From contig QHXQ01000020.1 of NCBI GenBank assembly GCA_003223935.1, positions 62,001 to 126,000 on the forward strand: DNA of 64,000 nt, in the 5' to 3' direction. Position numbers and translations under genes: made by a program. This document shows positions 28,860-56,801 of the stretch, piece after piece (position 1 is the stretch's first letter; every line of letters starts with the position of its first letter). The notes below the pieces were generated by a model. It did no database searches, was not told the DNA's origin, and worked only from the letters and a program-made list of their open reading frames with translations. This stretch comes from Acidobacteriota bacterium. GTDB taxonomy: Bacteria > Acidobacteriota > Blastocatellia > Pyrinomonadales > Pyrinomonadaceae.

Positions 28860-28901
28860 TCACACCGTGAACTGTCCCGCTTCGGCGGGGCAGTCACAAC
28901 T
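28860..28901. other. attL: left junction of the integrated element
   Basis: Read on the minus strand, 28883-28860 encodes E-A-G-Q-F-T-V-stop, matching the end of E2 (E-A-G-Q-F-Q-L-stop) at 56782-56759. The five shared codons (E-A-G-Q-F) differ only at two third positions. The shared crossover region is GCTTCG (28879-28884) with central TC at 28882-28883. Element-side arm GGGCAGT (28888-28894) and CAACT (28897-28901) pairs with the arm at the right end. In the integrated state the region also folds as a hairpin with a TTCG loop (28867-28897). Confidence 0.85.
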
Positions 28902-28931
28902 AGATATAACGCGCGAGTTTATCATGTGAGC

Positions 28932-28964
28932 TTGTCCATTATAGATAGATATTACAGTGGACAA
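28932..28964. repeat. Inverted repeat near the left end of the element
   Basis: TTGTCCA (28932-28938) and TGGACAA (28958-28964) flank an AT-rich TATAGATAGATATTA centre. It lies 50 bases inside attL and could be a binding site for an excision factor. Nothing else is visible in 28902-29020. Confidence 0.35.
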
Positions 28965-29020
28965 ATCTGTACACCGGAACAATATGAATATACGACTTAC
29001 CAAGCCACAGGTCTTCAGCA

Positions 29021-32000
29021 ATTTTCAACGCCTTCCGGCGACATAGGAATTCTCACCGAATTTCTGCGCGATGAACCTGATGTTGTCGCGGTGCTCAACG
29101 CCTTTCGGCATCATAGGAATCTTCACCTCGCCCGGCCATGCTTCCAACCACGCCAGAGCCAAGTCGTGCTCAACGCCTTTCGGCATCATAGGAATCTTCA
29201 CGGCAAATGAAGGCGGAAGACGCGCAGGCCATCTGGGAGTGCTCAACGCCTTTCGGCATCATAGGAATCTTCACGTCAAGAAAGTCGCGCGCGTGGGTCA
29301 AATGATCTTGGTGCTCAACGCCTTTCGGCATCATAGGAATCTTCACTCTGAAAAGAAAATGACGAACACGGTTGATTGTGGCTGGTGCTCAACGCCTTTC
29401 GGCATCATAGGAATCTTCACGCAGCAGAGAGGCGATGGCGCTGCTGCCACCCTCGTGCTCAACGCCTTTCGGCATCATAGGAATCTTCACAGAGGGTAAC
29501 GTGCGCGCCTTGCGACGCATGGCGCGGTGCTCAACGCCTTTCGGCATCATAGGAATCTTCACGCCGGCTGCGCTGGAATTGATTCTAAAATACCGGCTGG
29601 TGCTCAACGCCTTTCGGCATCATAGGAATCTTCACTGGCGAACGCACTAATTCTTGAGCCGTGCTAATTGCGTGCTCAACGCCTTTCGGCATCATAGGAA
29701 TCTTCACACGTTCTCTAAATTGTCAATCGCTTCGATTACAAGTGCTCAACGCCTTTCGGCATCATAGGAATCTTCACACGGAGGACGCGGACGGCTACCA
29801 GCACGTCTATGTGTGCTCAACGCCTTTCGGCATCATAGGAATCTTCACGCTGGTTGCGCCGTCCACCTCTTCAGGTGGACTCAAGTGCTCAACGCCTTTC
29901 GGCATCATAGGAATCTTCACCGCGACAGGGCGAGCGCGTGATGATGCCTAATTACGGGTGCTCAACGCCTTTCGGCATCATAGGAATCTTCACTACAGTG
30001 TGCCGCGCAGATTCTGATTCATCTCGTGCAGGTGCTCAACGCCTTTCGGCATCATAGGAATCTTCACCCCAAGCGTACCAACCGACAAGGTTTGTGCCTT
30101 CATGTGCTCAACGCCTTTCGGCATCATAGGAATCTTCACCGGCTTCGGCTGGCAGGAAGGAGCTTAACACTTGTAGTGCTCAACGCCTTTCGGCATCATA
30201 GGAATCTTCACGCAATGGGTTTTGCATGTCGTTAATCGAATGAAGCGCGAGTGCTCAACGCCTTTCGGCATCATAGGAATCTTCACGCACCGGCTTTCTA
30301 ATCATCGGGTGCATACTATAGCGTGCTCAACGCCTTTCGGCATCATAGGAATCTTCACGCTTTTTTAATGATGAAGGTCACGACGCCCCAAGCTTCAGTG
30401 CTCAACGCCTTTCGGCATCATAGGAATCTTCACCACCGGCCAGATCGCGCACATAGGCGGTCAAGCCGTGTGCTCAACGCCTTTCGGCATCATAGGAATC
30501 TTCACGTTGGGATGGCCACCTCAATGCGACGGGCGAAGTTGTGCTCAACGCCTTTCGGCATCATAGGAATCTTCACGCGCAACGAGCGCCGCTTTAAGTT
30601 GGTTTTTAGGTTTGTGCTCAACGCCTTTCGGCATCATAGGAATCTTCACCCCGATACGCCTGCGCCGCCGCCGGCGACCCAACCGAGTGCTCAACGCCTT
30701 TCGGCATCATAGGAATCTTCACCCCGGCCGCCGCGCCCACGCCCCAATGCGCGACCAGTGCTCAACGCCTTTCGGCATCATAGGAATCTTCACCGTTTGC
30801 GCGGGCAGCATGTCGGCTGAAGCCTTAGTGCTCAACGCCTTTCGGCATCATAGGAATCTTCACCTGCGCGATCCGGCGCGCAATCGAATTGCCCCATACC
30901 TGTGCTCAACGCCTTTCGGCATCATAGGAATCTTCACGCATCTTTCAAGTTGAGCGCCCGCAGCCCTACATGTGCTCAACGCCTTTCGGCATCATAGGAA
31001 TCTTCACACGGACAACACCGGCGCAGGATTTCTGTCGCGTCAATGTGCTCAACGCCTTTCGGCATCATAGGAATCTTCACCCCGCGCGTTCTTCCACTCC
31101 ATCGTTATCGGCAGGGGTGCTCAACGCCTTTCGGCATCATAGGAATCTTCACTCGCCACGCGCTGCACGCCGCCGCCATCCGAAGAGTGCTCAACGCCTT
31201 TCGGCATCATAGGAATCTTCACCGCCCCGTCTCGTCAATGCTGCGCAAGAGTTGGTGGTGCTCAACGCCTTTCGGCATCATAGGAATCTTCACCAACGTT
31301 TCGCATTAGCAATCGCTGCGCCGGTCTGGTGCTCAACGCCTTTCGGCATCATAGGAATCTTCACACCTGCTTGACGGCCTTGCGCACGGGCGGACGCGGT
31401 TGTGCTCAACGCCTTTCGGCATCATAGGAATCTTCACTGGGACACGGCATGAATACTTCCTGCGCGTGCATCCGGTGCTCAACGCCTTTCGGCATCATAG
31501 GAATCTTCACAGCCATTACAAGACGGCCATTGTCGATCCAACTGACGTGCTCAACGCCTTTCGGCATCATAGGAATCTTCACGCACAACATCTCCGCGAA
31601 GCACTTGCTTCGCTATCTGGTGCTCAACGCCTTTCGGCATCATAGGAATCTTCACATTACGGCGAACTTTCAAGTAGCGAACGCAACAACAGATGTGCTC
31701 AACGCCTTTCGGCATCATAGGAATCTTCACATCTGTGCCCTGCACCCAGCGCGAACCACACAGGTCTCGTGCTCAACGCCTTTCGGCATCATAGGAATCT
31801 TCACCCGACATGCTCGCCACGTCCGGCATCCAGACACGCGCCGTGCTCAACGCCTTTCGGCATCATAGGAATCTTCACAAGGGAGAAAGGTTGTGGGCTT
31901 GAAACCTCAGAGCAGCGCGGTGCTCAACGCCTTTCGGCATCATAGGAATCTTCACTCCCTTTCTACGATGAAGAGGCTGAGGTCTGGCGCGTCTTGTGCT

Positions 32001-32975
32001 CAACGCCTTTCGGCATCATAGGAATCTTCACCGTTGATGCCGACGCGCTGAAGGTCATAGGCCAGTTTGTGCTCAACGCCTTTCGGCATCATAGGAATCT
32101 TCACAGATCAACCGCGAGCACCCAATCACGCAGCCCCAGGTGCTCAACGCCTTTCGGCATCATAGGAATCTTCACTTGAACTGGCGCAAGGCTTCGCCAT
32201 GCTCGCGCTCGGTGCTCAACGCCTTTCGGCATCATAGGAATCTTCACCTCGACAAAGTATGCGTTGGTTTGAGGCGCACGATCAGTGCTCAACGCCTTTC
32301 GGCATCATAGGAATCTTCACGCGGCGGTCACATTCTAGTGACTGAGGCCGGCGTGGTGCTCAACGCCTTTCGGCATCATAGGAATCTTCACGCACGCCGT
32401 CGAGACGGCGCTACGCGAGACTCCCTAGTGCTCAACGCCTTTCGGCATCATAGGAATCTTCACACTCGCCGGCCGCCGACATTATTTATCATCTTTGAGT
32501 TAGAGTGCTCAACGCCTTTCGGCATCATAGGAATCTTCACCGGAAACGTCCGTAACTTCCGCATCTCCTGCATTCATGTGCTCAACGCCTTTCGGCATCA
32601 TAGGAATCTTCACTAGCAAGCGCCAACCCGCACGCGCGAGTTCAACCGGGTGCTCAACGCCTTTCGGCATCATAGGAATCTTCACGGCGTGGCGGCATCG
32701 AGCGCACTGGCAAAAAAGAGGTGCTCAACGCCTTTCGGCATCATAGGAATCTTCACTATCGTCTCAGGTGGGTTGTTCTTCATCTGCTTGCTTGTGCTCA
32801 ACGCCTTTCGGCATCATAGGAATCTTCACAAAGTCATCTGATTTTCAACGTGAGGCTCTACGCACGGTGCTCAACGCCTTTCGGCATCATAGGAATCTTC
32901 ACAGGCGGCGATTAGGACACAGCCCAACCGCCGCCCGCGGTGCTCAACGCCTTTCGGCATCATAGGAATCTTCAC
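29021..32975 (-). CRISPR. CRISPR array, 54 repeats plus one degenerate, 54 spacers
   Basis: Direct 36-base repeats start at 29091 and the last spans 32940-32975; I counted 54 without differences by eye. A decayed copy (about eight changes) at 29021-29056 marks the old end. Spacers are 34-41 bases. Plus-strand repeat halves are GTGCTCAACGCCTTTCGGC and ATCATAGGAATCTTCAC. On the minus strand the repeat holds GATGCC-GAAA-GGCGTT, a stem with a GNRA loop, followed by GAGCAC, leaving a handle of about eight bases as expected for Cas6 cleavage. So the array is read leftward, from a leader beside cas2, the same direction as the cas operon. Confidence 0.97.
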
Positions 32976-33280: not shown

Positions 33281-33571
33281 TTAAGCTATCTCGAAACTCT
33301 TCGCTTCATCCAACCATGATTCCGGCCGGTTGTGCGCGGCCACGCGCCGCTCGCACGGTTCGCACAGGCTAAGAATGAGGAGCCGATCTTCGTCGGTCAT
33401 AATCTTCTCTAACTCCCAGCGCAGCCTTTCCATCTGCCGCACTGTTAGACGGCACCTGAAGATAGAATACTGCAAGCGCCGACCGTAGCCGTGTAGCATC
33501 TTGTAAACGCGCCGCCAGCGCTTCGGCTCGGTGATGTCATAGCAGATGACATACCACTGCTTGGTTTCCAT
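33281..33571 (-). CDS. cas2: Cas2 spacer-acquisition protein
   Basis: 96 residues with the ferredoxin-like Cas2 start QWYVICYDIT (conserved aspartate at 13) and RRLQYSIFRC, where the S-I-F strand is typical. Cas2 dimers bridge two Cas1 dimers during spacer integration. Last gene of the cas operon, 17 bases after the Cas4-Cas1 gene. Confidence 0.93.
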   Translation of the reverse strand: METKQWYVICYDITEPKRWRRVYKMLHGYGRRLQYSIFRCRLTVRQMERLRWELEKIMTDEDRLLILSLCEPCERRVAAHNRPESWLDEAKSFEIA

Positions 33572-33588: not shown

Positions 33589-35250
33589 CTAACGCATTCG
33601 CATCCGGGCGAATAAGCCGCCTTCGCCCATCCACTCTTTCTCCAGCAGCCTGACTTCCAACTCCATCAAGCGCGCGTAGGTGAGCGAATGCCCGATGACG
33701 GGATGCTTCCACTGATCCGCTTTACGTCGCTCGTAGATGCCGATGAACCGCTTCCGCCCGGTTTCGGACAGCCAGACCTGCTGCCCGGCAATCTGGAAGT
33801 CGCTGTCTTCGTCCCACTGCCGGCGATTGATCGAAGCGATGACGGGCAGATCAACCAGCGGCACACGGAACAATTCCATCAAATCGAGGGCGAGGGGATG
33901 GGCCTGCGAGCGCGGTTGATGATAGAACCCGAGGCAGGGGTCAAGCCCGACCGTCAGGATCGCGTTCGTCACGTCTTTAAGCAAAAGCGCATAGCCATAC
34001 GAGAGCAGTGCGTTGCAGCGATCACGCGGTGGCCGTCGGCTGCGCCCTTCGGGGCGCATCGCTTCGCCGGCTTCCGGTACTACAAGGTGCGGTAAGGCAC
34101 TGAAGTAATAAGCGCCGATACTGCCCTCGTAGCCGCGCAGTGAATCTATGCTGTCCGCACGCGCAAGGGGCGACAGCAGCTTGCGCATCCCGCTGATGGC
34201 ATCCTTGACCGCTGGCACGGCGCGCCCTACCTCCCGGCTTGCGCGCAGGAGAAAACTTAACTGCCCGCGCGCACGCGCTTCTGCCAGCCGGCGCGCCAGT
34301 CGCAGACACAGCTCCGCGTCAGTCAGCGCCCGGTACTGCCTGATGCGGCGCTGCACCGACCCGACGCCGGCCGACCAAGCGCCCGTGTAACGCCCGCCCC
34401 CGGTGAGCCAATGCACGCCGATCTCCTGCTCGGCGCACAAGCGCAGTGCCTGCGTCGTGATCTGCGCGAAGCCATGCAGGACGATCTGTCCGATCTCATG
34501 CACCGGATGAAGCTGCGGCGGCTCGTCGCGCGCGGTGATCTCGAACCGATCACCTTTGCGCCCGACCCGCGCCCCTTGCGTCAACACGTGCAGCGTGCGC
34601 CGATCATCGTCCGCCGGGAAGAGTCTGAGGGTTGCGCGCACGGGCGACTCTCCTTGCGCCGGCACGTCTAGCCGCTCAGCGAGGCGCGCCTCTTCCGGCA
34701 GACACACAGGGGCGAGCGAGCAACGCACACATAGGCGCTCGTTCGTCGTCACCGGCGGGCGCTCGACCGACGCTTGCAACTCACGCGCGCGTGCGATGGC
34801 CCGCGCCAGATCAGCCCGCGCCTGCTCGTCGTAAGGCACATGCACCAGCACGTTGTCCGCGTGGTAACGCACACGCCCTTCCGGCACTGTGCGCCCCGTA
34901 TGCTCCTCAACCAGCGCGGCATACGCGATGACCTGCAAACGGTCGCTCGCCCATGCCTCCGCCTCCCCCGCACGCGACCGCGCCGACCGCCCCCGCTTGT
35001 GCTCATACGGCACGATCACCCCATCCCGCCGCCGCACACAATCAATCCGCCCCACCAACCCCCATTGCTCACTTGCGAGATTGAACGTCAGCCACTCCTC
35101 CTCGTCCTCCGCCCGCTCAAGCTCCACGTGCAAACGCCGCCCCGCATACACCGCCGCATCCGCCACCCGCATATTCTCCACCTCTTCGAGATAGAACAGC
35201 CGCTCGCAGTAAGCGAGAGCATGAAGTGAGTGAACACGTAATGCGGTCAT
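33589..35250 (-). CDS. cas4-cas1: Cas4-Cas1 fusion protein
   Basis: 553 residues. The Cas4 part (1-200) has the iron-sulfur cysteines C15 and C174, C177, C183 and RecB-type residues D70 (GRID), E83/K85 (YEHKRG) and the Q106-Y110 motif. The Cas1 integrase part (about 215-553) has the metal residues E375 (YEGSIGAYYF), H444 (GFYHQP) and D456/E459 (LDLMELFR). Cas4 trims and selects protospacers with the right PAM end; fusion holds it on the integrase. Fusions of this order are known for the Myxococcus-type and some I-U systems. All key residues are present, so adaptation is probably working. Confidence 0.93.
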   Translation of the reverse strand: MTALRVHSLHALAYCERLFYLEEVENMRVADAAVYAGRRLHVELERAEDEEEWLTFNLASEQWGLVGRIDCVRRRDGVIVPYEHKRGRSARSRAGEAEAWASDRLQVIAYAALVEEHTGRTVPEGRVRYHADNVLVHVPYDEQARADLARAIARARELQASVERPPVTTNERLCVRCSLAPVCLPEEARLAERLDVPAQGESPVRATLRLFPADDDRRTLHVLTQGARVGRKGDRFEITARDEPPQLHPVHEIGQIVLHGFAQITTQALRLCAEQEIGVHWLTGGGRYTGAWSAGVGSVQRRIRQYRALTDAELCLRLARRLAEARARGQLSFLLRASREVGRAVPAVKDAISGMRKLLSPLARADSIDSLRGYEGSIGAYYFSALPHLVVPEAGEAMRPEGRSRRPPRDRCNALLSYGYALLLKDVTNAILTVGLDPCLGFYHQPRSQAHPLALDLMELFRVPLVDLPVIASINRRQWDEDSDFQIAGQQVWLSETGRKRFIGIYERRKADQWKHPVIGHSLTYARLMELEVRLLEKEWMGEGGLFARMRMR

Positions 35251-35271: not shown

Positions 35272-36075
35272 TTACTGTTTAGTATTGAACTCCTGAACCG
35301 GAATCCAAGCTTTATCAGGCGGAGAGTCTTTTGTGTCTGTCAGGGCAAACGGCAAACTGCCAGATCGTGAAACGGATCGTGGTTCAGATTCATTATCAGC
35401 CTCGTAGTCAGTCCACACAGACAGGTAGTGCAAGCGCGCGCCGCGTGATAAAGGCTCGCCCTGATACAAGCTAAACCAGCGACATGGTGACGGATCATCC
35501 GAAACTTCAAGTCTCTCTACAAAGAAATTGTTGTCACCCATGAACGGCAATCCCCAATAGTCAAGTGTTGTCGGTTCCTCAACTCCTCTTCTCACGAGTT
35601 CTTCAAGCGCGGAATCGTTAAGACCGATGTAGCCCTCGAATCCGTGTAAACGGTAGCGTGCTCCGCTTACTTTGCCGGTTGGATCATGGTCAACCTCATC
35701 ATAGCTTTCGCACCCGTGCAAGAATTCGCGGATGTAAGGGCGTATATCCGGCTTTGTTCCTTTCGAGCGTTCAAAAGCCGCTTTGAGAGTTTCACCCTTT
35801 GGAGGCTTGCCTTTTCTTTTCTCAACTCGGCCTTCAAGTTTCACCCAATGCAATTGCTGGTACGCACGCCCATGCAACGGTAGCCTTTCGCCTTTGAGAC
35901 CTAGCGCGATTCGCGCCCCTGCATAGTCTTTTTTGCTTTCGCGTGGGACTCCGGCGAGACCAAGCAGAAGGCCGTATGCGGCGGAATGTGTGACAAAATC
36001 TGCCGTCATAGACATCTCTATGCTTTGGAAGGAGCGAAACGCGCCGAACGGAGCTTTGAAGTATAAGAACAGCAT
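35272..36075 (-). CDS. cas5: Cas5 (DevS/Cmx5 type) Cascade subunit
   Basis: 267 residues. It opens with MLFLYFKAPFGAFRSF, the RAMP-type first strand of Cas5, and contains THSAAYGLLLGLAGVPRES, the usual helix that positions the crRNA handle. It caps the 5' handle of crRNA in the surveillance complex and contacts Cas8. Between cas7 and cas4-cas1 with 15- and 21-base gaps. Lower GC content than the genes outside the element. Confidence 0.88.
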   Translation of the reverse strand: MLFLYFKAPFGAFRSFQSIEMSMTADFVTHSAAYGLLLGLAGVPRESKKDYAGARIALGLKGERLPLHGRAYQQLHWVKLEGRVEKRKGKPPKGETLKAAFERSKGTKPDIRPYIREFLHGCESYDEVDHDPTGKVSGARYRLHGFEGYIGLNDSALEELVRRGVEEPTTLDYWGLPFMGDNNFFVERLEVSDDPSPCRWFSLYQGEPLSRGARLHYLSVWTDYEADNESEPRSVSRSGSLPFALTDTKDSPPDKAWIPVQEFNTKQ

Positions 36076-36090: not shown

Positions 36091-37206
36091 TCAAGAATTA
36101 GTTCGAGCCGCATCAAGTTTGGCTTCCGCGATGACGGCTTCGATTGCTGCATCGGAAGTCTCAAACAGATGCACTTCTGTAAGTTGCCCTAAATCTTGCG
36201 CGTCGTCTGCGGTATGTGAAGTTTCGCCTTTCTTTTTTGCTAAGGCGGCGCGCAAAGCGGGATGCTCTCTCACAATCCTTCCACCGAGATAAAAATCTGT
36301 CGGTGGCAATAGCCCCTCTTTCAACATTTGAATCAATTCCTGTTGACTCTCATCTGGTTTGTTGTCTTGCTTTGGCCTGAAGCCATAGATGTCAAACTCC
36401 GGTGCGCGTCGCGTCGTTAAGCGCAAGACAATTGAGACGGGCGCGAACGGGTACATCGTGCGCGCGTGATTACCGCCGACTCCGTTAAGTTCTCCGATGG
36501 CGCGTAGCAGAAGCGCAATCCAACGCTTCTTCTCCTGCTTGTTTTCTTCTGGGAAGCTATCCCAACCGGGCAGATGGCGCAGGTCATTAAGATTCAAGCC
36601 GAACGGATACTGAAAAGCTGTGACGTGTACTTCGCGCTCAATGAGCGCCGATTTCTTTGCGTTGCGGTACGCGCTGTCTTCTGAAGCCTTCGGTGATTGG
36701 TGCATCGTATGGGTGTTGTAGCGCGGGAAAGGCTCAAGCGAAACGGCGTAGTTGACGCGCAAGATCGAATCGCCCTGTTTCTCTAACACCTCTTTTTTCT
36801 TCTTTTCATCAATCATTAAAAACCCGAACAACAGGTCGTCGGCAAATCTGTCTCTGTCAGGTAATGCGTCAAACTTGACGGTGATTTGATCCTTTTCCTC
36901 TTCGCCCGTAGCTTCTGCTTCTTTAGCTTTCGGGTTCGTAACTTTGGGGTTAATGACACGCGAGCGATTCAGCTTGCCCTTCAGCAGATCATCATCGCGC
37001 AGCATTTCACGCAAGCGGCTACGAATCGCTTCCGCGCTAACGAGCGTGTATTGCTCTTTATTGGGGAAAGAGAGTTTCTGCAAAACCGCGCGATTGTTCT
37101 GTGTCTCACCGCGATAGTTCGAGGCGGGAGCGACGTTGGTTAGCACCGTGCCGAAAATGTTCTTGAACTTCCCTTCGATATTCTTGACTTCTTGTTCGGT
37201 CGTCAT
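36091..37206 (-). CDS. cas7: Cas7 (DevR type) backbone subunit
   Basis: 371 residues of the DevR branch of the Cas7 superfamily: an N-terminal LTNVAPASNYRGE, then a long insert (about 85-125, lysine/glutamate-rich) and a GVGGNHARTMYPFAPVSIVLRLT segment that is the glycine-rich RRM hallmark. Copies of Cas7 line the crRNA spacer in Cascade. In Myxococcus the same family was first found through fruiting-body development, hence the name; here the context is plainly CRISPR. It starts 20 bases after cas8. Confidence 0.9.
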   Translation of the reverse strand: MTTEQEVKNIEGKFKNIFGTVLTNVAPASNYRGETQNNRAVLQKLSFPNKEQYTLVSAEAIRSRLREMLRDDDLLKGKLNRSRVINPKVTNPKAKEAEATGEEEKDQITVKFDALPDRDRFADDLLFGFLMIDEKKKKEVLEKQGDSILRVNYAVSLEPFPRYNTHTMHQSPKASEDSAYRNAKKSALIEREVHVTAFQYPFGLNLNDLRHLPGWDSFPEENKQEKKRWIALLLRAIGELNGVGGNHARTMYPFAPVSIVLRLTTRRAPEFDIYGFRPKQDNKPDESQQELIQMLKEGLLPPTDFYLGGRIVREHPALRAALAKKKGETSHTADDAQDLGQLTEVHLFETSDAAIEAVIAEAKLDAARTNS

Positions 37207-37226: not shown

Positions 37227-38933
37227 TTAGTTCTTGGGTTTAGCTGTAACACTATCTGTCTTTGTTGACTTCTGCGCTCTGTATCGAAGGTTCGCGCCTG
37301 CGGCAGAAATTGCCATCAGCACAAGCCACCGTCCGCTTTCCCATAATTCACCATCATAAAATGGACGTAACATCTCGCGTTGCGCGGGCGTTGTGTAAGA
37401 CTCGGCTTCAAAAAGTCGCGCGATGAAGAGTTCTGCGAATCGTGGTTGATCGGTCGCACCGCGAAAATCAACAAACTCTTGATTGACGCCTTTAGCGTAT
37501 TTCTCCTCATAGTCTCTGTAGATGTCGCTTTCATCTTTTGACAAAGCGATGTTTTGGGTTCTTTTCTCAGAGATGTCCCTTACCTTCTGCTCATCAGGTG
37601 GTCTTTGTCCTTTATTGAATACATGCCACCACAAGTACCTCGTTACAAGCCTGTCAATCAGCGTTGGAACGCTGGTCTCTACATCGCTCATTTCATCCTC
37701 CTTTTCAGCGAAATATTTGAAATTTGCGGCTAGGTCTTGTACTAACTCGTGCGCCTTCTCTCGAAGTTTATATATGCCATCCTCGCCCCGCTCTTTCACT
37801 GGCACGAACAGTTCAAGCGGCCATTGATCTACGAGTTTATTAAAGCCGTCATACCAGACGCGCCCCGCGAGTAAGTTCTCAACGCGCAATGCACGGTACG
37901 GCAGCGATTTCAAGTCTCGTCCTAATAAATCACGGTATTCTTGAAGAGTAGCGTCGTCGTAAGTTTCGTTAAAGACCCCCACCACTTCCGGCTGTTTGCC
38001 GGGACGATAAACGAAGACAGTCGCACCGTTCACGAGTTGATTTATCTCGCTTTTGATTTCTCTCGTAATGGCTTGGCTGTGAGCGATGCTTGGCGCGACG
38101 TAGAAGGCAAGAGCCGCTTCAAGATGAGTGCTAATAACTGGCTCAAACTGCCTACTGTATGTGCCTTTGATATAGTCAAAAAAGTCCTGAACGTGTGAGA
38201 CATCGGGCACAACTATAACAGGCGGTAGCCACGCATCTATTACCCGCTTCTCATTCTTATCGTATTTTAGAGATTTAGGCTTAAAGAACCACGACGCTAA
38301 CGACCAGAAATGAAGGAGTAGCGCATCCTTACCACGCTCGTGCAGAGATGCTCCTTTAAGATTATTGCCTACTACGTTCGGAAGCGAGGATTTCTGAATA
38401 TCTGCCGCCCCTTCAGAAGCAATCGCAGCCCATAGCGTGTTGATTCTTTCGGCAAGGGTTTTCTTTTCTTTGGTAACACTAAAGAATGATTCCCGTTCTT
38501 GATAAATCGAGAAGAAAGAGCCTAAGTATGCTGATCTGATGTCCTTCTGTATTTTTTGATCTGCACCTAATACTTCTAAATACCTCAAGCGCGGCATAAG
38601 CACCGTCTTCGCGGTCTTGTCGTTCACCCATGCTTCTCCCAAATATCGTTCTTGGAGAACCGCGTCAAAGCTTTGCATTGTGAAAGTCACTTCGATGCCG
38701 CGCCCAGCTTCGATCCATTTCAAGTCCGGTACAGAGACAACATCCTCTTCCGGCAACATCTCGTTTCTTTTCCTCATTGCTTCGATCTGTAATGCCAGTC
38801 CGACCATCCCAGCTCGATGCAGAGCGTTGAATGAAGTGTCAAGCGGGTCATATCTAAGCGGCGGCAATTCGCTTACCGCTACGGTCACGATTTCGCTCTT
38901 CTTGTTTCTCCCTTTACTTGCTCTTGGACTCAT
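37227..38933 (-). CDS. cas8: Cas8 large subunit (Cas8a1/Cmx1 type)
   Basis: 568 residues. No catalytic motif is expected or seen. Identity rests on size, on the N-terminal LPPLRYDPLDTSFNALHRAGMVGL pattern (the L-Y-x-P-L-x-T-S-x-x-x-H-R-A-G block typical of Cas8a1/Cmx1-like proteins) and on position between cas3 and cas7. The large subunit reads the PAM and recruits Cas3. Its start overlaps the cas3 stop by four bases. Divergence in this gene is high across families, so the subtype label (Myxococcus type, usually placed with I-A/I-B) is provisional. Confidence 0.82.
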   Translation of the reverse strand: MSPRASKGRNKKSEIVTVAVSELPPLRYDPLDTSFNALHRAGMVGLALQIEAMRKRNEMLPEEDVVSVPDLKWIEAGRGIEVTFTMQSFDAVLQERYLGEAWVNDKTAKTVLMPRLRYLEVLGADQKIQKDIRSAYLGSFFSIYQERESFFSVTKEKKTLAERINTLWAAIASEGAADIQKSSLPNVVGNNLKGASLHERGKDALLLHFWSLASWFFKPKSLKYDKNEKRVIDAWLPPVIVVPDVSHVQDFFDYIKGTYSRQFEPVISTHLEAALAFYVAPSIAHSQAITREIKSEINQLVNGATVFVYRPGKQPEVVGVFNETYDDATLQEYRDLLGRDLKSLPYRALRVENLLAGRVWYDGFNKLVDQWPLELFVPVKERGEDGIYKLREKAHELVQDLAANFKYFAEKEDEMSDVETSVPTLIDRLVTRYLWWHVFNKGQRPPDEQKVRDISEKRTQNIALSKDESDIYRDYEEKYAKGVNQEFVDFRGATDQPRFAELFIARLFEAESYTTPAQREMLRPFYDGELWESGRWLVLMAISAAGANLRYRAQKSTKTDSVTAKPKN

Positions 38934-43373: not shown

Positions 43374-45263
<1,890 letters not shown>

Positions 45264-45289
45264 AAAACACCTCCGTTACTTACGCTCGG

Positions 45290-47326: not shown

Positions 47327-47336
47327 CGCCGTGATC

Positions 47337-47804: not shown

Positions 47805-48433
47805 ACCTGCCAACCTCTGGGCCCCAATTTGCGCTGCACACGCTTGCGCACCCGATCCTTGTGCTGTTTGACAATCCGCTGCTGTTCGGACACCGGCTGC
47901 TCCGTAATGCCCAACACCACGGCGTAGGCGCTCGTCTCACGCACGCCTTCGAGCATCAGTTCGAGCACCTGCTGGTCTGTCGAGTCGGTGACGATGGGAC
48001 GGAGTTTTGCTGCTATTCGCTGCTCAGTCTCATGCTCGCTCAGGCGGACAGACTCATCCCAATCTGCACCCGACGCTACTCCATATACAGTCTCTGCCTC
48101 TTCAACTGCGACAACTTCCTGCTGCCCGGTAGAATTTTTCCGTCTGAGTTCGTTGAGCAAGCGGCTCCGCGCAAGCAGCCGCAGGTAGGTCAGCAGCGTG
48201 CCGCGCGCCGGGTCGAATTTCTCCGGTCGGGCAAGATATTCGAGCAATGCATCTTCGGCACAACTCGCGATCAGGTGTTGGTCGCTGACGGTCGGGAAGC
48301 TGCGCGGTAAACGCTTGAGCAGTTCGGGCAGAAAGACCTCGGCGATCCGGCTCGTGACTGTGAGGCTCGCCTGTTCGAGCAAGAGCTGATGTAGGCGCTC
48401 GCCTAGCTCTCTTAAATCAATTTGTGAGGACAT
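47801..48433 (-). CDS. Sigma-70-like protein
   Basis: 210 residues. The segment KFDPARGTLLTYLRLLARSRLLNELRRKN (about 72-100) is a convincing sigma region 2 helix with the promoter-melting and core-binding pattern, and the last 60 residues have a region-4-like helix-turn-helix (VLGITEQPVSEQQRIVKQHKDRVRKRVQRKL). The linker is acidic. It could direct transcription of the element genes, or have been recruited as a DNA-binding subunit of the nuclease module. It starts three bases after the methyltransferase stop. Confidence 0.68.
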   Translation of the reverse strand: MSSQIDLRELGERLHQLLLEQASLTVTSRIAEVFLPELLKRLPRSFPTVSDQHLIASCAEDALLEYLARPEKFDPARGTLLTYLRLLARSRLLNELRRKNSTGQQEVVAVEEAETVYGVASGADWDESVRLSEHETEQRIAAKLRPIVTDSTDQQVLELMLEGVRETSAYAVVLGITEQPVSEQQRIVKQHKDRVRKRVQRKLGPRGWQV

Positions 48434-48436
48434 GGC

Positions 48437-49711
48437 TCAAGCTGTTTTCTGGAACACTAAGACATATTCGGTCTCCATCCGCTGGCCGAAGTTTTCTTGC
48501 ATGTAGGGCAGGATACGCCGGCGCACGCTGATGGTGCGTTGCACCTCCTGCTTGAGTTTCAACTGGTGTACGCGCGCGAGTTCGACGAAGACCTTATGCG
48601 TCGGGACGGGAACTTTACGGATGTGCGACGGGCAGATCACAATGATTGCGTGCCGTTTAGGCTTGAGCACGCGCGCCGTTTGGCGGAAGACGCGATGCAT
48701 ATCTGCGAAGTATCGTTGTAGCTGACTTGCCTGCCGGGCTGAGTCCTCAGCCATCTGCGTCAGCACAGAGCTTGCGAGTTCGAACCGAGCCAAGCGCGGG
48801 TTGAGCGCGAACCCACGCCCTGTGCGCCCACGCTCGCTGCCAATATAGACCGGCCCCAGCGCGCGATAGTCCGTCAGCTTGATGCCTAGCGCGTACCGCA
48901 TCCAAGCCACCGCCAGAAAGTGCGCGCGCGAATAGTCGAGCGCCGTGGCGTAAGGTGGCGAGGTGAACACGAGATCGATGGTCTCGCTCCGCACGCGTAG
49001 TGAGCGTGCATCGCCGAGTTTGGCCGTCGCGGTTGTTGCCTGCGCCGCCGCCCGACACCCCTCGCGAAAGTCGGCCATCTGCCGGCGCATCTGGCGCACG
49101 CGGGCGGCGAAGCGGCTGAGTACGTCAGGCGTCTGCTCGTGTTGCCAGTAGTGGTGCCGCGAATGAATGATGTCCCGCGCATTCGCTACGCTGGTCTTAG
49201 CTAGAATGAGCGATGAGAATGCGACCCAGAAGAAGTTACGCGCGTGCGCCGACATCGGCGTTCGACTGATGTGATACGACAGGACGGCCAATGCGGCGGC
49301 GACCGTCGGCTCAAACCATTTATCGAGATTAGGGAAATCAGGCGGCGTAGCGCGCGCGCACAAAGCTGCGGTAGCCGCTCTGCCTTGTAGTGCGGTCACA
49401 TCTGCTGCCGCTCTACGTGTGATCACCTTGTAAGCCCGCTCGATCTGGCTATCATGCACTTGTCGAGACTTGACCTGCGCGATCATCCGAGCCAGCGGAT
49501 CGATGTCGTAGCCGACAGCGTGCCGCCCCCTCAGCCGCGCCTCAACGAGCGTAGTACCGCTGCCGGCCATCGGATCAAGCACAATCTCGCCCGGCTTTGA
49601 ATAGTACCGCAGTCCATAACGGACTAATTGCGGTGGGCACTTGGCTGCATAGGCGTGCAACCCGTGTGTGGCATAGAGCGTGTTCTGAGTGGTGAAGTCG
49701 AGTTCAGGCAT
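48437..49711 (-). CDS. Site-specific DNA methyltransferase (N4/N6 amino type)
   Basis: 424 residues. SAM motif I DPMAGSGT at 46-53 precedes the catalytic motif TSPPY at 250-254, an order with motif I before IV. A helical target-recognition insert lies between (about 100-240). The TSPPY form suggests N4-cytosine or N6-adenine methylation. No restriction endonuclease gene is adjacent; the only nuclease is the NurA-like protein. First gene of a six-gene leftward operon. It probably marks self DNA for the module. Start is the ATG giving MPELDFTTQN. Confidence 0.88.
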   Translation of the reverse strand: MPELDFTTQNTLYATHGLHAYAAKCPPQLVRYGLRYYSKPGEIVLDPMAGSGTTLVEARLRGRHAVGYDIDPLARMIAQVKSRQVHDSQIERAYKVITRRAAADVTALQGRAATAALCARATPPDFPNLDKWFEPTVAAALAVLSYHISRTPMSAHARNFFWVAFSSLILAKTSVANARDIIHSRHHYWQHEQTPDVLSRFAARVRQMRRQMADFREGCRAAAQATTATAKLGDARSLRVRSETIDLVFTSPPYATALDYSRAHFLAVAWMRYALGIKLTDYRALGPVYIGSERGRTGRGFALNPRLARFELASSVLTQMAEDSARQASQLQRYFADMHRVFRQTARVLKPKRHAIIVICPSHIRKVPVPTHKVFVELARVHQLKLKQEVQRTISVRRRILPYMQENFGQRMETEYVLVFQKTA

Positions 49712-50001: not shown

Positions 50002-50313
50002 TCACTTACTTTTCCGTACACGTTTCATTACCCATTCATAACCGATTGTCGCCGGCAATCGCTCCGGCAGATCAAGATCATCATCAACTAGCAGCTCCAT
50101 CGGCACGCCCGCCACACGCGCATACGCTAAGAGCACAAGCACTGGCGGCTCGCGCTTGCCCGTTTCGTACTCACCGATATGCCCCCGGTAGAGCGCGGTC
50201 GGCGGCGCGCCTAATCGCTCGAACATTTGCTGCTGTGTGAGACCGAGCGCGGTGCGTATCTGCCGTAACTTACCGGCGAGGCGCAACGGGCGCGGGCGGC
50301 GCGAGCGACCCAT
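50002..50313 (-). CDS. XRE-family transcription regulator
   Basis: 103 residues: a basic start, then a helix-turn-helix of the Cro/CI type (LRQIRTALGLTQQQMFERLGAPPTAL ... IGEYETGKREPP, about 12-60) and a short acidic tail extending into a basic end. It has AGGAGG nine bases before the ATG I chose; the frame extends 14 codons upstream without support. It lies upstream of the methyltransferase operon on the same strand, with 290 bases between, and is divergent from the lipoprotein gene. A perfect inverted repeat 42 bases upstream is its likely operator. Confidence 0.85.
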   Translation of the reverse strand: MGRSRRPRPLRLAGKLRQIRTALGLTQQQMFERLGAPPTALYRGHIGEYETGKREPPVLVLLAYARVAGVPMELLVDDDLDLPERLPATIGYEWVMKRVRKSK

Positions 50314-50354
50314 CAGTCCATACCTCCTGATGGGCGGCGTCTGCGTGCTTCCCA

Positions 50355-50376
50355 TTTGCCCCTAATAAGGGGCAAA
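50355..50376. promoter_or_regulatory. Operator-like inverted repeat upstream of the XRE gene
   Basis: TTTGCCCCT (50355-50363) and AGGGGCAAA (50368-50376) are perfect nine-base arms four bases apart, in the divergent gap between the XRE and lipoprotein genes. Autoregulation by the XRE protein is likely. Confidence 0.6.
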
Positions 50377-52712: not shown

Positions 52713-52746
52713 CTAAAACGGCACTGATAACTCGGTGCCGTTTTAG
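52713..52746. terminator. Bidirectional terminator-like hairpin
   Basis: CTAAAACGGCAC (52713-52724) and GTGCCGTTTTAG (52735-52746) form a perfect 12-base stem with an A-run and a T-run on the outside, after the gene at 51828-52610. Confidence 0.65.
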
Positions 52747-52783
52747 TTTCTCGGAAGCAAGCATAGCAACACGGAGACAGAGC

Positions 52784-52990: not shown

Positions 52991-53259
52991 ACGCGCAAAG
53001 CAAAGCACCCAGCGTGTTAGCGGAACGCGCGGATGAAGATGAAAAAGCGGATCATGAGGATGGCACAGGCACTTTCATCTTGGACAATAGTCACGCCCTT
53101 GCTGTTTGCCATCTTGCGTGCGATTTCGTCGTTGAGTGCGGACGTGGTTCCACATTATGTACTCGACATCTGACGGGACTTAGAACGCTTAACGCGCAAC
53201 GAGTGCCTCGCTGTAACGTGCGACAGCGCCAACTCGACGAAGGGCAGGTGGCAGCGTGA
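52987..53259 (+). CDS. Small protein between excisionase and helicase
   Basis: 90 residues, ATG overlapping the previous stop (ATGA) and stop overlapping the next start (GTGA), so translation coupling makes it likely real. It has an acidic first third (ERADEDEKADHEDG), then five cysteines in HALAVCHLACDFVVECGR and later, possibly metal-binding. No family recognised. Confidence 0.55.
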   Translation: MNAQSKAPSVLAERADEDEKADHEDGTGTFILDNSHALAVCHLACDFVVECGRGSTLCTRHLTGLRTLNAQRVPRCNVRQRQLDEGQVAA

Positions 53260-54953
53260 GTTCCGTCCATCAGTCTATAATCGAGCGCCCGCTGCCGCAC
53301 TCTGCGGAGAGCGAGCGCGCTATCCTCGGCGCGATCATCCTCGACAACAACTTAGTCAATCAGGCTACCAAACTGCTCAGGCCCGACGACTTCTACCAGC
53401 GCGCGCACCAGCTAGTCTTTCGCGCTATGATCGCGCTCTCCGAACGCGGCTCAGAGATCAACCCGATCCTTTTGGGCGAAGAACTTCGGCGCGAGGGCTG
53501 GCTCGAACAGGCCGGCGGCGTCGCCTTCATCTCTGAACTCGCCTACGGGCTGCCGCACTTCACGAAACTCACCTCTTATGCCGAGATCGTGCGTGAGAAA
53601 AGCGCGCTGCGACGACTTGTCCATCTCGGCGATGAATTAGTCGCCCGCGCGCTTGAAGAGGATGGCGACCCCTTTACTACTGCGGCATGGGCGGCAAATA
53701 AACTGGCCGAAAAGGTCAAAGCTGTCGGCGCGGTGGTACATGTCGTGCGCATGTCCGACGTTGAGCCCGAAGATGTGCGCTGGCTGTGGTATCCCTACAT
53801 CCCGCTCGGCAAATTGACCATCCTCGAAGGTGATCCGGGCTTGGGCAAGTCGTGGTTGACGTGCGCGCTCGCAGCGGCTGTCACCTGCGGGCGCAAGCTA
53901 CCGGGCGGCGAGCCACTGGCTCCAAGTAACGTGTTGATGCTCTCTGCGGAAGACGGCCTCGGCGATACGCTCAGACCTCGGCTGGATGCGGTAGGTGCAG
54001 ACGTGGCGCGCGTGTTCGCCTTGCCTGAGCCTATCATGTTCGATGCCGGCGGGCTGCTCAAGCTCGAAGCTGCGATCCACGAACATTCTCCCGCTCTCGT
54101 CATCGTCGATCCTTTATTCGCATACACGAGCGGCAAGGTGGACATTCACCGGGCGAATGAATGCCGGGCGATCTCCGCGCCTCTCGCGGCCATCGCCGAA
54201 CGGTGTGAATGCGCGCTGGTCGCCGTGCGGCACTTGAGTAAGTCGCGCGGCGGCGGGCACGCCTTGAACGCCGGCATCGGCTCCATTGATTTCGCGGCGG
54301 CGGCGCGCTCTGTCTTGCTGGCTGGGAAAGACCCTGATGACGAAACAAAGCGCGCTGTCGTGCAGACTAAGAATAACCTCGCCACCCTCGGGCCGGCGCT
54401 CGGCTATAAGCTGGAAGATGGTCAATTCTGGTGGACGGGTGAGAGCGATCTAACTGCCGGTCGTATCCTTGCCGCCGCCACCGATGAAGAAGGGCGTAGC
54501 GCCCTGAACGAGGCGGTGGAGTTCTTACGGGCGGCGCTCTCTAACGGAGAGCGGGGGATGAAGGAAGTGCAAGCCGACGCCCGCAGCGCCAGCATATCCG
54601 GCGCGTCGCTACGGCGCGCGCGCGAACACTTGCGCATAAAGATGCGCAGGTGTGGCCCGATAGGTCAACCCCAACAGTTCTACTGGTCACTGCCCGCCAA
54701 CGATGATGCTCAAGCGCGCCCGGTTGATGCCCAGAAGATGGCAGTTGAACATCATCTGGTAAGTGGCAACGGTAAAGGTACTTATACCAAGAAGTTGCTC
54801 GATGATGTTCAAGGCGCAGTGCCTGAACATGATCAGGGACGCATTGAGCATCATCCGACGGTAGAAGAAAACTACTTCCCTGTCGGCATGACCATTGAAG
54901 AGTACGCGCGCCTATACGCAGAGCAAGAGCAGGCTACGCGGGGAGAGGTTTGA
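53256..54953 (+). CDS. DnaB N-terminal domain fused to RepA-type ATPase
   Basis: 565 residues starting at GTG. Residues about 12-115 are the DnaB N-terminal collar domain (SAESERAILGAIILDNN, the hallmark start of replicative helicases). From about 165 a AAA_25/RepA-like RecA fold follows with Walker A GDPGLGKS at 192-199 and Walker B ALVIVDPLFAY, normally found in plasmid RSF1010-type RepA hexameric helicases. The last 120 residues may be a winged-helix. It is likely the element's own replicative helicase or primase-linked ATPase. The collar fused to a RepA core in place of the DnaB motor is unusual. Confidence 0.82.
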   Translation: MSSVHQSIIERPLPHSAESERAILGAIILDNNLVNQATKLLRPDDFYQRAHQLVFRAMIALSERGSEINPILLGEELRREGWLEQAGGVAFISELAYGLPHFTKLTSYAEIVREKSALRRLVHLGDELVARALEEDGDPFTTAAWAANKLAEKVKAVGAVVHVVRMSDVEPEDVRWLWYPYIPLGKLTILEGDPGLGKSWLTCALAAAVTCGRKLPGGEPLAPSNVLMLSAEDGLGDTLRPRLDAVGADVARVFALPEPIMFDAGGLLKLEAAIHEHSPALVIVDPLFAYTSGKVDIHRANECRAISAPLAAIAERCECALVAVRHLSKSRGGGHALNAGIGSIDFAAAARSVLLAGKDPDDETKRAVVQTKNNLATLGPALGYKLEDGQFWWTGESDLTAGRILAAATDEEGRSALNEAVEFLRAALSNGERGMKEVQADARSASISGASLRRAREHLRIKMRRCGPIGQPQQFYWSLPANDDAQARPVDAQKMAVEHHLVSGNGKGTYTKKLLDDVQGAVPEHDQGRIEHHPTVEENYFPVGMTIEEYARLYAEQEQATRGEV

Positions 54954-54957
54954 ACCT

Positions 54958-55197
54958 GTGAACGGTGAGGCATCGGTAGATGAACGGGCGCGGGATCGTG
55001 CAACGATGAGTAATAGGCCGCCAACAATTTGCAGAGAGTCAAATCGCAAAGGCACTGCGGAGCTTGATCTGCTCATCGAGTACGAGCCGAACGAAGCGCG
55101 GACGGCGCGCGCCATACTGCTCATCATAGGGCTGCCGGCGGAAGAAATCGAGCGTATCGTGGGGGAAATCACTCTTGAATCACACCACGAGATGTGA
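54958..55197 (+). CDS. Small protein before the integrase
   Basis: 79 residues from a GTG with GAGAGG ten bases upstream; an ATG at 55006 would give 63. The C-terminal half (LLIEYEPNEARTARAILLIIGLPAEEIERIVGEI) is an acidic helical pair. Its stop overlaps the integrase start region, suggesting coupling. Could be a recombination directionality factor or other partner of the integrase; not recognised. Confidence 0.5.
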   Translation: MNGEASVDERARDRATMSNRPPTICRESNRKGTAELDLLIEYEPNEARTARAILLIIGLPAEEIERIVGEITLESHHEM

Positions 55198-56801
55198 TGA
55201 GATTCATGCTCACCATGAAACAGTACATCCCCTACGCGCGCGTCTCCAGTGACGAACAGAAGGACGCCGAGACAATCAAGACCCAAATCGCCGAGGTCGA
55301 GCAGCACTCTCTAGTCTGTAACCTCTTGCTCGCGCCCGAATGGATCACTGACGATGGCGTGTCAGGGATAATTCCTTTTCACGAACGACCGGGCGGCGCA
55401 CGCGTGCTAGAACTTCTGCGCACGAAACGATACGCAGGAGTAGCATGTCTCAATCACAAGCGTATCGGGCGCGACGCTTACGTCATTCACTTGGCGGTGC
55501 GACAGATCGAGCAGGAATTAGGCGGCGATATTCAAGCCATCCGCGAGCCTGTTCCTTCCGCGCTTACGCCCGGCGCACGCGCGCTCATGCGCGCCATGTA
55601 CGCAGGCGTAGCCCAGTACGACCGCGAAGAGTTGCTCGCCGCGATGCGCGCCGGGAAGCTTCGCGCCGCCAAAGAAGGGCGTTGGTCGGGTGGGGGCGTG
55701 CCTTTCGGCTTAAGGCTGGAAACGGTGCGTGTGCCCGGTCGCATGAAGCCGATCAAGCGGCTCGTGCCCGACGAGAAGACCGCCGCTTTCGTCTTGGAAA
55801 TCTTCACGCTCTACGCCGCTGGGCACTCGCAGAAAGAACTCGCTCGCCTGTTCAACGCGCGCGGCGTCCCGCACCCGACCGGTGATCGCTGGCGGCAGAG
55901 CACGCTCAGCTACATGCTACGCAATCCTTTCTACAAAGGAGAGGGCGTGTGGCGACGTCGCTATGAGGCTAAGAACGAGCGCGGCGGGCTGAGCAAATAT
56001 AACTCATCGCCCGAAAGCGTAGTGCGTTACGAAGACTATCAAGTGCCCGCCATTGTGCCGCCTGAGTTGTGGGCGCAGTGCGCTCATCTGCGGCAGGAGA
56101 AGACGAAACTCGCGCCGCGCAATGCACGTCACCTTTACCTGCTGCGCGGGCTTGTGCGCTGCGGTGTATGCAGGCGCACCTTTACTGGCGTCAGCAACCA
56201 ACACCGCTGGTTCTACTATCAGTGTAATTCGCGCGCCGAGCATTGTGTGCCCAACTGCGGCAACCGCCGCGTGCGCGCTGCCGACCTTGAGCATTTAGTT
56301 TGGGAAGAGATCGCCCGCTTTGCGACGAATCCGGGTAAGGTCTTAGGGAAACTGCGGCAGGCACGCGCGCCGCGGGGCGGGGCGGAAGTTGAGCCGCGCC
56401 GCATCGAACAGCACCTCGCCGCCAAGCAGCGTGAGCGGGCGCGGGTTATTACTTGGGCGCGGCAGGGGATGATCACGGAGGAGGAATTAGACACCCAACT
56501 AGTGCAGTTGCGCGCTGAAGTGGCGACCCTCGAAGCAGAAAGCGCACGCATTGGCGCGGCGCAAGCGGCGGCGCGCTCCGCGCGCGAACGACTCGCAGAC
56601 GTGGAAACCTTCCTTGAGTCGCTCGCTGCGCGCGTGGACGCGCTCACGGACGAGGAACGCGCGCAGGTCGTCCGCCAACTCGTGCCGCGCGTGGTCATCA
56701 CGCCGCGCGCCGATGGGCGCGTTAAAGTTGCCGCCACCTATGCTTTCGCGCCGCCAGCCTATAGTTGGAACTGCCCGGCTTCGAGCGTCTGCTTGACATA
56801 G
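55197..56801 (+). CDS. Large serine recombinase (integrase)
   Basis: 534 residues. The N-terminal resolvase domain has the nucleophile S17 in YARVSSDEQ, followed by IGRD and a MYAGVAQYDREE helix. A recombinase domain (around 165-270), a zinc ribbon with CGVC and later cysteines (about 325-355) and a coiled-coil tail (about 390-470) complete a large serine integrase. It lies at the right end of the element and reads across attR: the last five residues (S-V-C-L-T) are encoded by chromosomal E2 DNA. In the circular form the frame would instead end with A-G-Q-S-Q-L-D-I-T-R-E-F-I-M. Start is the ATG of TGATGAGA at 55197; a GTG three bases earlier is possible. Confidence 0.93.
   Translation: MRFMLTMKQYIPYARVSSDEQKDAETIKTQIAEVEQHSLVCNLLLAPEWITDDGVSGIIPFHERPGGARVLELLRTKRYAGVACLNHKRIGRDAYVIHLAVRQIEQELGGDIQAIREPVPSALTPGARALMRAMYAGVAQYDREELLAAMRAGKLRAAKEGRWSGGGVPFGLRLETVRVPGRMKPIKRLVPDEKTAAFVLEIFTLYAAGHSQKELARLFNARGVPHPTGDRWRQSTLSYMLRNPFYKGEGVWRRRYEAKNERGGLSKYNSSPESVVRYEDYQVPAIVPPELWAQCAHLRQEKTKLAPRNARHLYLLRGLVRCGVCRRTFTGVSNQHRWFYYQCNSRAEHCVPNCGNRRVRAADLEHLVWEEIARFATNPGKVLGKLRQARAPRGGAEVEPRRIEQHLAAKQRERARVITWARQGMITEEELDTQLVQLRAEVATLEAESARIGAAQAAARSARERLADVETFLESLAARVDALTDEERAQVVRQLVPRVVITPRADGRVKVAATYAFAPPAYSWNCPASSVCLT
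56759..56800. other. attR: right junction inside the E2 3' end
   Basis: Element-side arm AGTTG (56763-56767), ACTGCCC (56770-56776), then GGCTTCG with central TC at 56781-56782, then chromosomal E2 sequence. The new E2 tail (CAG TTC CAA CTA TAG) is supplied by the element. Joined to 28885-28901 it gives the symmetric attP. Confidence 0.85.

What the first reader, a model, noticed from the sequence alone, without database searches (positions are those of the whole stretch)
28882..56782. Base-exact 27.9 kb serine-integrase island that carries a complete type I CRISPR-Cas system
The left junction holds the original tail of the E2 gene (E-A-G-Q-F-T-V-stop, minus strand 28883-28860), and the right junction holds the same five codons followed by a different end (Q-L-stop). 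The two copies differ only at synonymous positions within E-A-G-Q-F. Joining the element ends gives AGTTG-2-ACTGCCC, ten bases, GGGCAGT-2-CAACT, a perfectly symmetric attP with TC at its centre, which is what large serine integrases recognise. The integrase gene lies at the junction. CRISPR-Cas with full adaptation genes is known on some mobile elements but this arrangement, bounded by a restored metabolic gene, is unusual.
Basis: partly seen in the sequence, partly recalled or inferred. Interest (0 to 1): 0.92.

Follow-up and report, generated by a model that had tools for sequence, protein, structure and literature searches.

The report
Jumping island that carries CRISPR immunity
A soil bacterium carries a 28-kilobase mobile DNA element that has slotted itself into the end of a core metabolic gene, rebuilt that gene's ending, and brought along a whole CRISPR immune system; a relative has a sister element in the same spot carrying a different CRISPR system, so whole immune systems appear to be delivered to one fixed address.

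Summary
A 27.9-kb element lies between a 2-oxo acid dehydrogenase E2 gene and that gene's displaced original tail. In 33 of 38 family genomes compared with both genes on one contig, E2 is followed within 68-879 bp by the OmpA-like gene that here lies beyond the island. The ends rejoin into a symmetric attP (14 of 18 arm positions; 1 of 200,000 random pairs as good). The cargo is a type I-B CRISPR-Cas system (cas3, 4-1, 2, 5, 6, 7, 8b; 54 spacers). (1) G034 carries a second element, 32.4 kb, same site, 67%-identical integrase, displaced E2 tail at its far end; cargo type III-B CRISPR-Cas with Cas6-RT-Cas1 plus type I restriction-modification. (2) attP lies inside the integrase gene: integrated, the last codons come from host E2; in the predicted circle both integrases have equal length and similar tails (LDITREFIM / LEIIREYLI), echoed by an unjoined viral relative. 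(3) The attP half-site also encodes the replacement E2 ending. Excision, transfer and CRISPR activity are inferred. CRISPR on integrated islands, SCCmec among them, is known: a new variant of a known kind.

The parts
28860..28883 (-). Displaced original 3' end of the host E2 gene (E-A-G-Q-F-T-V-stop); host half of attL
28882..28883 (.). Predicted crossover dinucleotide of attL (TC/GA), placed by symmetry of the rejoined attP
28884..28929 (+). Element left end: one arm of attP, and in the predicted circle the last codons and stop of the integrase (..SAGQSQLDITREFIM-stop)
29021..32975 (.). CRISPR array, 36-bp repeat, 54 identical copies plus one degenerate copy at the attL side, 54 spacers
33281..33571 (-). 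cas2
   Evidence: PF09827, 2.8e-22
33589..35250 (-). cas4-cas1 fusion
   Evidence: Cas1 4.7e-85, Cas4 2.8e-18; Cas1b 7.6e-242
35272..36075 (-). cas5 (weak family matches)
   Evidence: Cas5b 2.9e-6; TIGR02586 9.5e-18, below its cut-off; no Pfam match
36091..37206 (-). cas7
   Evidence: below Pfam cut-off; TIGR01875 above cut-off
37227..38933 (-). cas8b, type I-B large subunit
   Evidence: Cas8b_C 1.5e-18; 9.3e-36
38930..41422 (-). cas3 helicase-nuclease; HDIGK, GSGKT and DEVH motifs present
41425..42129 (-). cas6 crRNA endonuclease
   Evidence: 1.7e-63
42147..43238 (-). WYL-domain regulator next to the cas genes
43374..46504 (-). HerA-like ATPase (43374-45263) and a 404-aa protein without family match (45290-46504)
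46580..49711 (-). IrrE/CapP-like peptidase (46580-47377), unassigned ORF (47337-47813), sigma-70 region 2-like protein (47801-48433), DNA methyltransferase (48437-49711)
50002..50355 (-). Helix-turn-helix regulator
   Evidence: HTH_3 2.5e-9
53256..54953 (+). DnaB-like replicative helicase, possible replication function (inference)
   Evidence: a 32%-identical ORF sits beside the integrase in G024
55006..55197 (+). 63-aa ORF whose stop overlaps the integrase start; similar ORFs beside the integrase in G010, G024, G025 and a matching stretch about 0.3 kb before it in G034; candidate directionality factor (inference)
55197..56801 (+). Large serine integrase; its last codons and stop lie in host E2 sequence in the integrated state
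56759..56800 (.). attR; element-supplied E2 ending A-G-Q-F-Q-L-stop (56780-56759, minus) doubles as the other arm of attP; predicted crossover TC at 56781-56782
56759..58147 (-). Host 2-oxo acid dehydrogenase E2 gene, the integration target
   Evidence: TIGR02927 above cut-off; E1 beta and lipoamide dehydrogenase above cut-off and an E1 alpha-like gene below cut-off lie upstream

Best explanation
The 27.9-kb stretch is an integrated mobile element. Its large serine integrase recombines attP on the circular element with attB in the last codons of the host E2 gene. The element brings its own version of the last codons (A-G-Q-F-x-x-stop), written in one arm of attP, so E2 stays intact while its original tail is pushed to the far end. 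Its main cargo is a type I-B CRISPR-Cas system with adaptation genes and 54 spacers, so a host that gains the element gains an immune system with its memory. Shown by sequence: boundaries, empty site, gene content, a second element at the same site with a different CRISPR type. Inferred: excision and integration by this integrase, CRISPR activity, movement between cells and its route (no relaxase, secretion or virion genes recognised in the ORFs scanned). Because attP lies inside the integrase gene, integration replaces the last residues of the integrase by host-encoded ones; that this matters for the direction of the reaction is a hypothesis.
For: Junctions and displaced tail. Symmetric attP. 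Empty-site gene order in 33 of 38 genomes. E2 ending E-A-G-Q-F-T-V with no integrase trace above shuffles behind it in G055, G048, G040 and G001. Second element in G034: E2 ends ..AGQFLI, a 67%-identical integrase abuts it, displaced E2 tail 32.4 kb on, then host sequence matching G055; cargo Cas10, Cmr1, 3, 4, 6, Csx1-like, Cas6-RT-Cas1, arrays, HsdR, M, S. Integrase remains directly behind E2 also in G010 and G025; 4 of 30 genomes tested in all have a clear match (scores 315-678 against shuffle maxima below 60). Circular-form integrases of both elements have the same length (543 residues) and similar tails: 89 of 1,000,000 random stop-anchored pairs score as high; unjoined viral relative L083 has PTQLTISREV at the same alignment position. 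Foreign-looking Cas8b: 1 match besides the window's own in 396 phylum genomes. GC of cas5-cas3 0.487 against 0.603 and 0.607 in the flanks.
Against: No reads, so no direct circular or empty junction. Only two complete elements were seen; the G010 integrase is decayed, G025 and G024 end at contig ends. The G034 attP is less symmetric (11 of 18; 496 of 200,000 random pairs reach 11), and its displaced tail differs from G055 at one base beside the crossover. E2 to OmpA spacing is also enlarged without a clear integrase in G019, G024, G043 and G055. No spacer target was found. The GC break inside the island suggests the cas genes were added to the element rather than being original to it. L083 continues past the shared tail motif, and six other viral integrases and the one of G055 C16 do not show it clearly.
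Confidence: 0.94

Rival explanations
1. The serine-integrase element is real but smaller or older, and the CRISPR-Cas locus later inserted into it by another route, so the immune system is a passenger of a passenger.
For: GC break at the cas genes (0.487 for cas5-cas3 against 0.600 for 42147-56782). Cas8b has almost no relatives in the phylum sample. The two elements share only the integrase and the small ORF near it, apart from Cas1 similarity.
Against: The array and cas genes lie wholly between attL and attR; a second element also carries a CRISPR-Cas locus between its own att sites. No second integrase and no transposase was recognised among the 20 island ORFs scanned.
Confidence: 0.35
2. 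A prophage or phage satellite remnant: the element moved as or with a virus and kept integrase, DnaB helicase and CRISPR-Cas.
For: A 39%-identical integrase lies in an IMG/VR contig and weaker ones near the ends of other viral contigs. DnaB-like helicase and HTH regulator present.
Against: No capsid, tail, portal or lysis family among the 20 island ORFs scanned with Pfam or the 9 scanned with PHROGs; the one terminase-like PHROG hit is to the HerA-like ATPase.
Confidence: 0.3
3. Assembly or binning artefact joining a CRISPR contig to the E2 locus.
For: The genome is a draft in 128 contigs with 87.66% completeness.
Against: Base-exact att anatomy, a single displaced tail, the expected genes on both sides, and an independent parallel in another assembly.
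Confidence: 0.02

Closest known systems
SCCmec type V(5C2&5) with type III-A CRISPR-Cas in staphylococci (PMC10434264, abstract and outline seen)
   Same: Chromosomal cassette carrying a whole CRISPR-Cas locus and shown there to be excised; that SCC uses large serine recombinases (Ccr) and inserts at the 3' end of a conserved gene (rlmH) is recalled.
   Different: Target gene is E2, not rlmH; CRISPR is type I-B here and type III-B with RT-Cas1 in G034; a single integrase; different phylum; attP inside the integrase gene.
CRISPR-Cas genomic islands and other mobile elements of Vibrio, e.g. GI-24 (PMC6360697, abstract and outline seen)
   Same: Whole CRISPR-Cas systems of several types located on mobile elements; one island with an excision assay.
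   Different: No member with a large serine integrase at an E2 gene was seen in what I read; the integrase class of the Vibrio islands was not checked.
Large serine recombinase elements with att sites predicted by comparing occupied and empty genomes (PMC10083194, search passages seen)
   Same: Same recombinase domain (PF07508) and same boundary logic; several LSRs sharing one target gene are described.
   Different: That paper reports no enrichment of targets within or near anti-phage genes; in the passages seen it does not describe CRISPR cargo of this kind.
SPbeta integrase YokA (PDB 9dxh)
   Same: Best solved relative of the integrase profile, 5.1e-32 over profile positions 6-517.
   Different: Phage SPbeta; other PDB entries hold it together with YotN (its partner, recalled), while our candidate partner is an unassigned 63-aa ORF that was not compared with YotN.

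Membership tests
Large serine integrase element | Resolvase catalytic domain with Recombinase and zinc-ribbon domains, catalytic serine motif | tested here: met
   (YARVS at residue 13)
Large serine integrase element | Hybrid attL and attR around a short core, and an empty attB in relatives | tested here: met
Large serine integrase element | Recombination of attP with attB by the integrase alone | not testable with these tools
   needs an assay
Type I-B CRISPR-Cas | Cas8b with Cas3, Cas5, Cas6, Cas7 and adaptation genes beside an array | tested here: met
   the Cas5 matches are weak
Type I-B CRISPR-Cas | Interference and spacer acquisition | not testable with these tools
   needs an assay; no spacer target found
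SCC (staphylococcal cassette chromosome) | Insertion in rlmH (feature recalled) | tested here: not met
   target is E2
SCC (staphylococcal cassette chromosome) | Ccr recombinases (feature recalled) | not tested
   only general LSR profiles were run
Integrative conjugative element | Relaxase and type IV secretion genes | tested here: not met
   no such family recognised among the 20 island ORFs; HerA-like ATPase gives only a generic TrwB match (5.8e-7); other small ORFs not scanned
Prophage | Structural and packaging genes | tested here: not met
   20 ORFs; 9 ORFs; other small ORFs not scanned

The most novel reading that the evidence does not exclude
A family of elements specialised in delivering whole, interchangeable CRISPR-Cas systems (types I-B and III-B with reverse transcriptase) to one address, the end of the E2 gene, whose integrase gene is rewritten by integration: the attP arm encodes the new E2 ending on one strand and the integrase end on the other, so integration swaps the integrase's conserved C-terminal tail for a host-encoded one, which could act as a built-in lock on the reaction.
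Probability: 0.3. Interest if true: 0.8.

Novelty: new variant of a known kind. Interest (0 to 1): 0.66.

Why it matters
CRISPR-Cas loci are gained and lost often, but the vehicle is seldom seen with base-exact ends (general knowledge). Here two elements in related soil bacteria show the same vehicle, the same address and two quite different CRISPR systems, which makes site-specific exchange of adaptive immunity directly testable. The overlap of attP, integrase end and E2 end is a compact design that may explain how the element leaves a core gene working, and raises the question whether integration changes the integrase.

Tried and rejected
Spacer targets: the array against the phage and plasmid collections gave no phage match and two cyanobacterial plasmid places (73.9% and 72.5% identity) that I did not resolve into repeat or spacer. 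Spacers against the window and the loci held by then gave the arrays themselves and short partial matches, the best being 20 bases at 95%; against six further stretches of the own genome the visible part of the output shows no match longer than 19 bases, but that output was cut. Collection scans for single spacers were not made.

Cas8b in viral contigs: none confirmed. G024 contig C309 carries a Cas6-RT-Cas1 70% identical to that of G034, which I hoped was a third element, but the rest of the contig gave no match to either element, its ORFs look host-like by eye, and no E2 tail was found on it, so I do not count it. E2 endings that look element-like in G043, G019 and G024 (and a similar stretch behind E2 in G048, seen by eye) suggested old scars, but alignment of the downstream DNA to the integrase end did not beat shuffles; one other genome, G054, beat its shuffles slightly (46 against 39). 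G010 has a second intact integrase on C153 not at E2; its site was not solved.

Papers: ten searches listed no E2-targeting CRISPR element and no paper that I could recognise from title or abstract as describing a serine integrase gene that crosses attP; that is limited to this open-access library, these terms and the rows shown. Papers seen: PMC10434264 and PMC6360697 abstract and outline, PMC11656645 two reference-list passages and PMC10083194 search passages; all others only as listings.
Full report
Setting. The window is G000:C99:62001-126000 of a 5.27-Mb draft genome in 128 contigs. Contigs of relatives carrying the same integrase correspond by length to named Acidobacteriota records (JAFAVK010000055.1 for G034 C79; QHXN01000088.1 and QHXN01000099.1, labelled gp4, for G010; JAIVJG010000283.1 for G024 C85), so the host is taken as an Acidobacteriota group 4 bacterium (inference).

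Observation. The left junction carries the 24-base tail E-A-G-Q-F-T-V-stop on the minus strand (28883-28860); the right junction is the end of the E2 gene, E-A-G-Q-F-Q-L-stop. E2 is a 2-oxo acid dehydrogenase dihydrolipoyl acyltransferase; E1 beta and lipoamide dehydrogenase genes (above cut-off) and an E1 alpha-like gene (below cut-off) lie beside it. Rejoining the ends gives TCTAGTTGTGACTGCCCCGCC-GA-AGCCGGGCAGTTCCAACTATAGG, whose arms agree at 14 of the 18 positions next to the core; of 200,000 random arm pairs in the window, one reached 14.

Empty site. In one search, 141 of 145 genomes had a match to E2 (distant paralogues count there), 71 of 87 had the left-flank OmpA-like protein at 1e-40. 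I compared 49 family genomes with an E2 row (48 of them also): in 38 an OmpA-like row was on the same contig, and in 33 of these the two matches lie 68-879 bp apart on the same strand; the exceptions are G019 (5.2 kb), G024 (5.3 kb), G043 (17.4 kb), the window (28.3 kb) and G034 (43.2 kb). The other 11 could not be judged (other contig, or not searched). In G055, which was not, the same two left-flank genes follow E2 in the same order but 18 kb away, so that locus has content of its own there; its E2 ends E-A-G-Q-F-T-V with no integrase trace above shuffles, as in G048, G040 and G001.

The second element. In G034, E2 ends E-A-G-Q-F-L-I, an integrase 67% identical to ours abuts it on the opposite strand, and 32.4 kb further the displaced tail GAGGCCGGCCAGTTCACCGTCTGA appears, 23 of 24 bases identical to the E2 end of G055, followed after about 170 bp by sequence aligning to G055. 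All of this lies on one 228-kb contig. Between the ends are HsdR, HsdM and HsdS, Cas10, Cmr1, Cmr3, Cmr4 and Cmr6, a Csx1-like CARF protein, a 996-aa protein with Cas6, reverse transcriptase and Cas1 domains, and CRISPR repeats in two blocks (59 repeat matches with up to 5 mismatches, 139494-147512). I scanned 13 of the 26 ORFs that my picker listed there, so the list is not complete. The two elements share the integrase and a small ORF near it; among the ORFs compared nothing else matched except the Cas1 domains. Two complete elements, two CRISPR-Cas systems of different types: two of two is suggestive, not a rate. G010 and G025 also have integrase sequence directly behind E2 (decayed in G010; in G025 interrupted by a run of N, with the cargo cut by the contig end); in all, 4 of 30 genomes tested have a clear match there, and G054 a marginal one of no evident meaning. 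The family is rare in what is held.

The integrase crosses attP. In both elements the integrase frame runs through attR and stops inside host E2 sequence. Joining the ends in frame gives 543 residues in both, ending ..SQLDITREFIM and ..SNLEIIREYLI, against 534 and 532 in the integrated forms. Among 1,000,000 random pairs of nine residues before a stop, 89 score as high. A viral relative at 39-40% identity, read without any join, has PTQLTISREV at the same position of the alignment, though its protein continues beyond it, and another has NTLEISINKEA; six other viral relatives inspected, and the distant integrase of G055 C16, do not show it clearly. The tail pattern, which I made from these two elements, occurs in 2 of 119 family genomes, only at these two ends. 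This supports the circular form as a real past state and means that integration replaces the end of the integrase. Whether this alters activity is untested.

The half-site doubles as gene end. The E2-side arm of attP (AGCCGGGCAGTTCCAACTATAG) encodes A-G-Q-F-Q-L-stop in the E2 frame, and its inverted partner is at the other end. The same holds in G034 (A-G-Q-F-L-I). So the sequence that the integrase probably binds (inference from symmetry) is also what keeps E2 intact.

Cargo of the window element. Array with 54 identical repeats and one degenerate repeat at the attL side; spacers 34-41 bp. cas2, cas4-cas1, cas5, cas7, cas8b, cas3, cas6 in one block, with a WYL regulator; the Cas3 HD, nucleotide-binding and DEVH motifs are present. 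Then a HerA-like ATPase with an unassigned neighbour, IrrE/CapP-like peptidase, sigma-70-like protein, DNA methyltransferase, HTH regulator, DnaB-like helicase. No relaxase, secretion, capsid or tail family was recognised among the 20 ORFs scanned with Pfam; other small ORFs were not scanned. No Rfam family reached its gathering score in the window. GC is 0.603 and 0.607 in the flanks, 0.487 over cas5-cas3 and 0.600 over 42147-56782, and Cas8b has one other match (41%) among 396 sampled phylum genomes: the effector genes look foreign and added.

Comparison with what is known. CRISPR-Cas on integrated islands is established: SCCmec type V carries type III-A and is excised (PMC10434264, abstract), and Vibrio mobile elements carry many types (PMC6360697, abstract). 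The LSR survey PMC10083194 uses the same boundary logic (passages). The new points are the address, the two different CRISPR systems at it, and the overlap of attP with both the integrase end and the E2 end. Ten paper searches listed no description of this element that I could recognise.

Verdict. Integration history is close to certain; current mobility and immune function are inferred.

Noticed in passing
window 43374-46504: HerA-like ATPase next to a 404-aa protein without any match in Pfam, PADLOC, PHROGs or NCBIfam; could be an ATPase-nuclease pair of its own.
   Followed up: partly
window 46580-49711: IrrE/CapP-like peptidase, unassigned 158-aa ORF, sigma-70-like protein and DNA methyltransferase in a tight same-strand run; may be a separate regulatory or defence module.
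   Followed up: partly
window 55006-55197: 63-aa ORF coupled to the integrase start, with a shared GLPxxEIERxV motif in G010, G024 and G025 and a 44-residue match upstream of the integrase in G034; the longer ORF reading has no Pfam or PHROGs match.
   Followed up: partly
window 55677-55770: ARAGORN calls a tRNA-Leu (taa) inside the integrase gene; probably a false call.
   Followed up: no
G000:C4:11153-11989 and G000:C109:2820-3626 (L110, L111): Two more Cas1 genes in the same genome, so the host may have other CRISPR-Cas loci besides the island.
   Followed up: no
G024:C309:22343-25321 (L107): Cas6-RT-Cas1 70% identical to the G034 element protein, with repeat-like sequence beside it, on a contig otherwise unlike either element.
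   Followed up: partly
L068:8625-10199 (G010:C153): Second, intact integrase of the same family (64% identical) not at E2; its target site was not solved.
   Followed up: partly
L114 (G043:C435:1377-18821): 17.4 kb between E2 and the OmpA-like gene, with an element-like E2 ending (N-W-Q-L) but no integrase trace above shuffles; possible old occupied site with replaced content.
   Followed up: partly
L072-L073 (G055:C14:81460-88943): About 7.5 kb behind the intact E2 end of G055 that does not align to the corresponding place in G034; content not studied.
   Followed up: no
window 29600-31351 against NZ_CP007544.1:51283-51736: The array matches a Synechocystis plasmid stretch at 73.9% in three pieces, perhaps related CRISPR repeats.
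   Followed up: no
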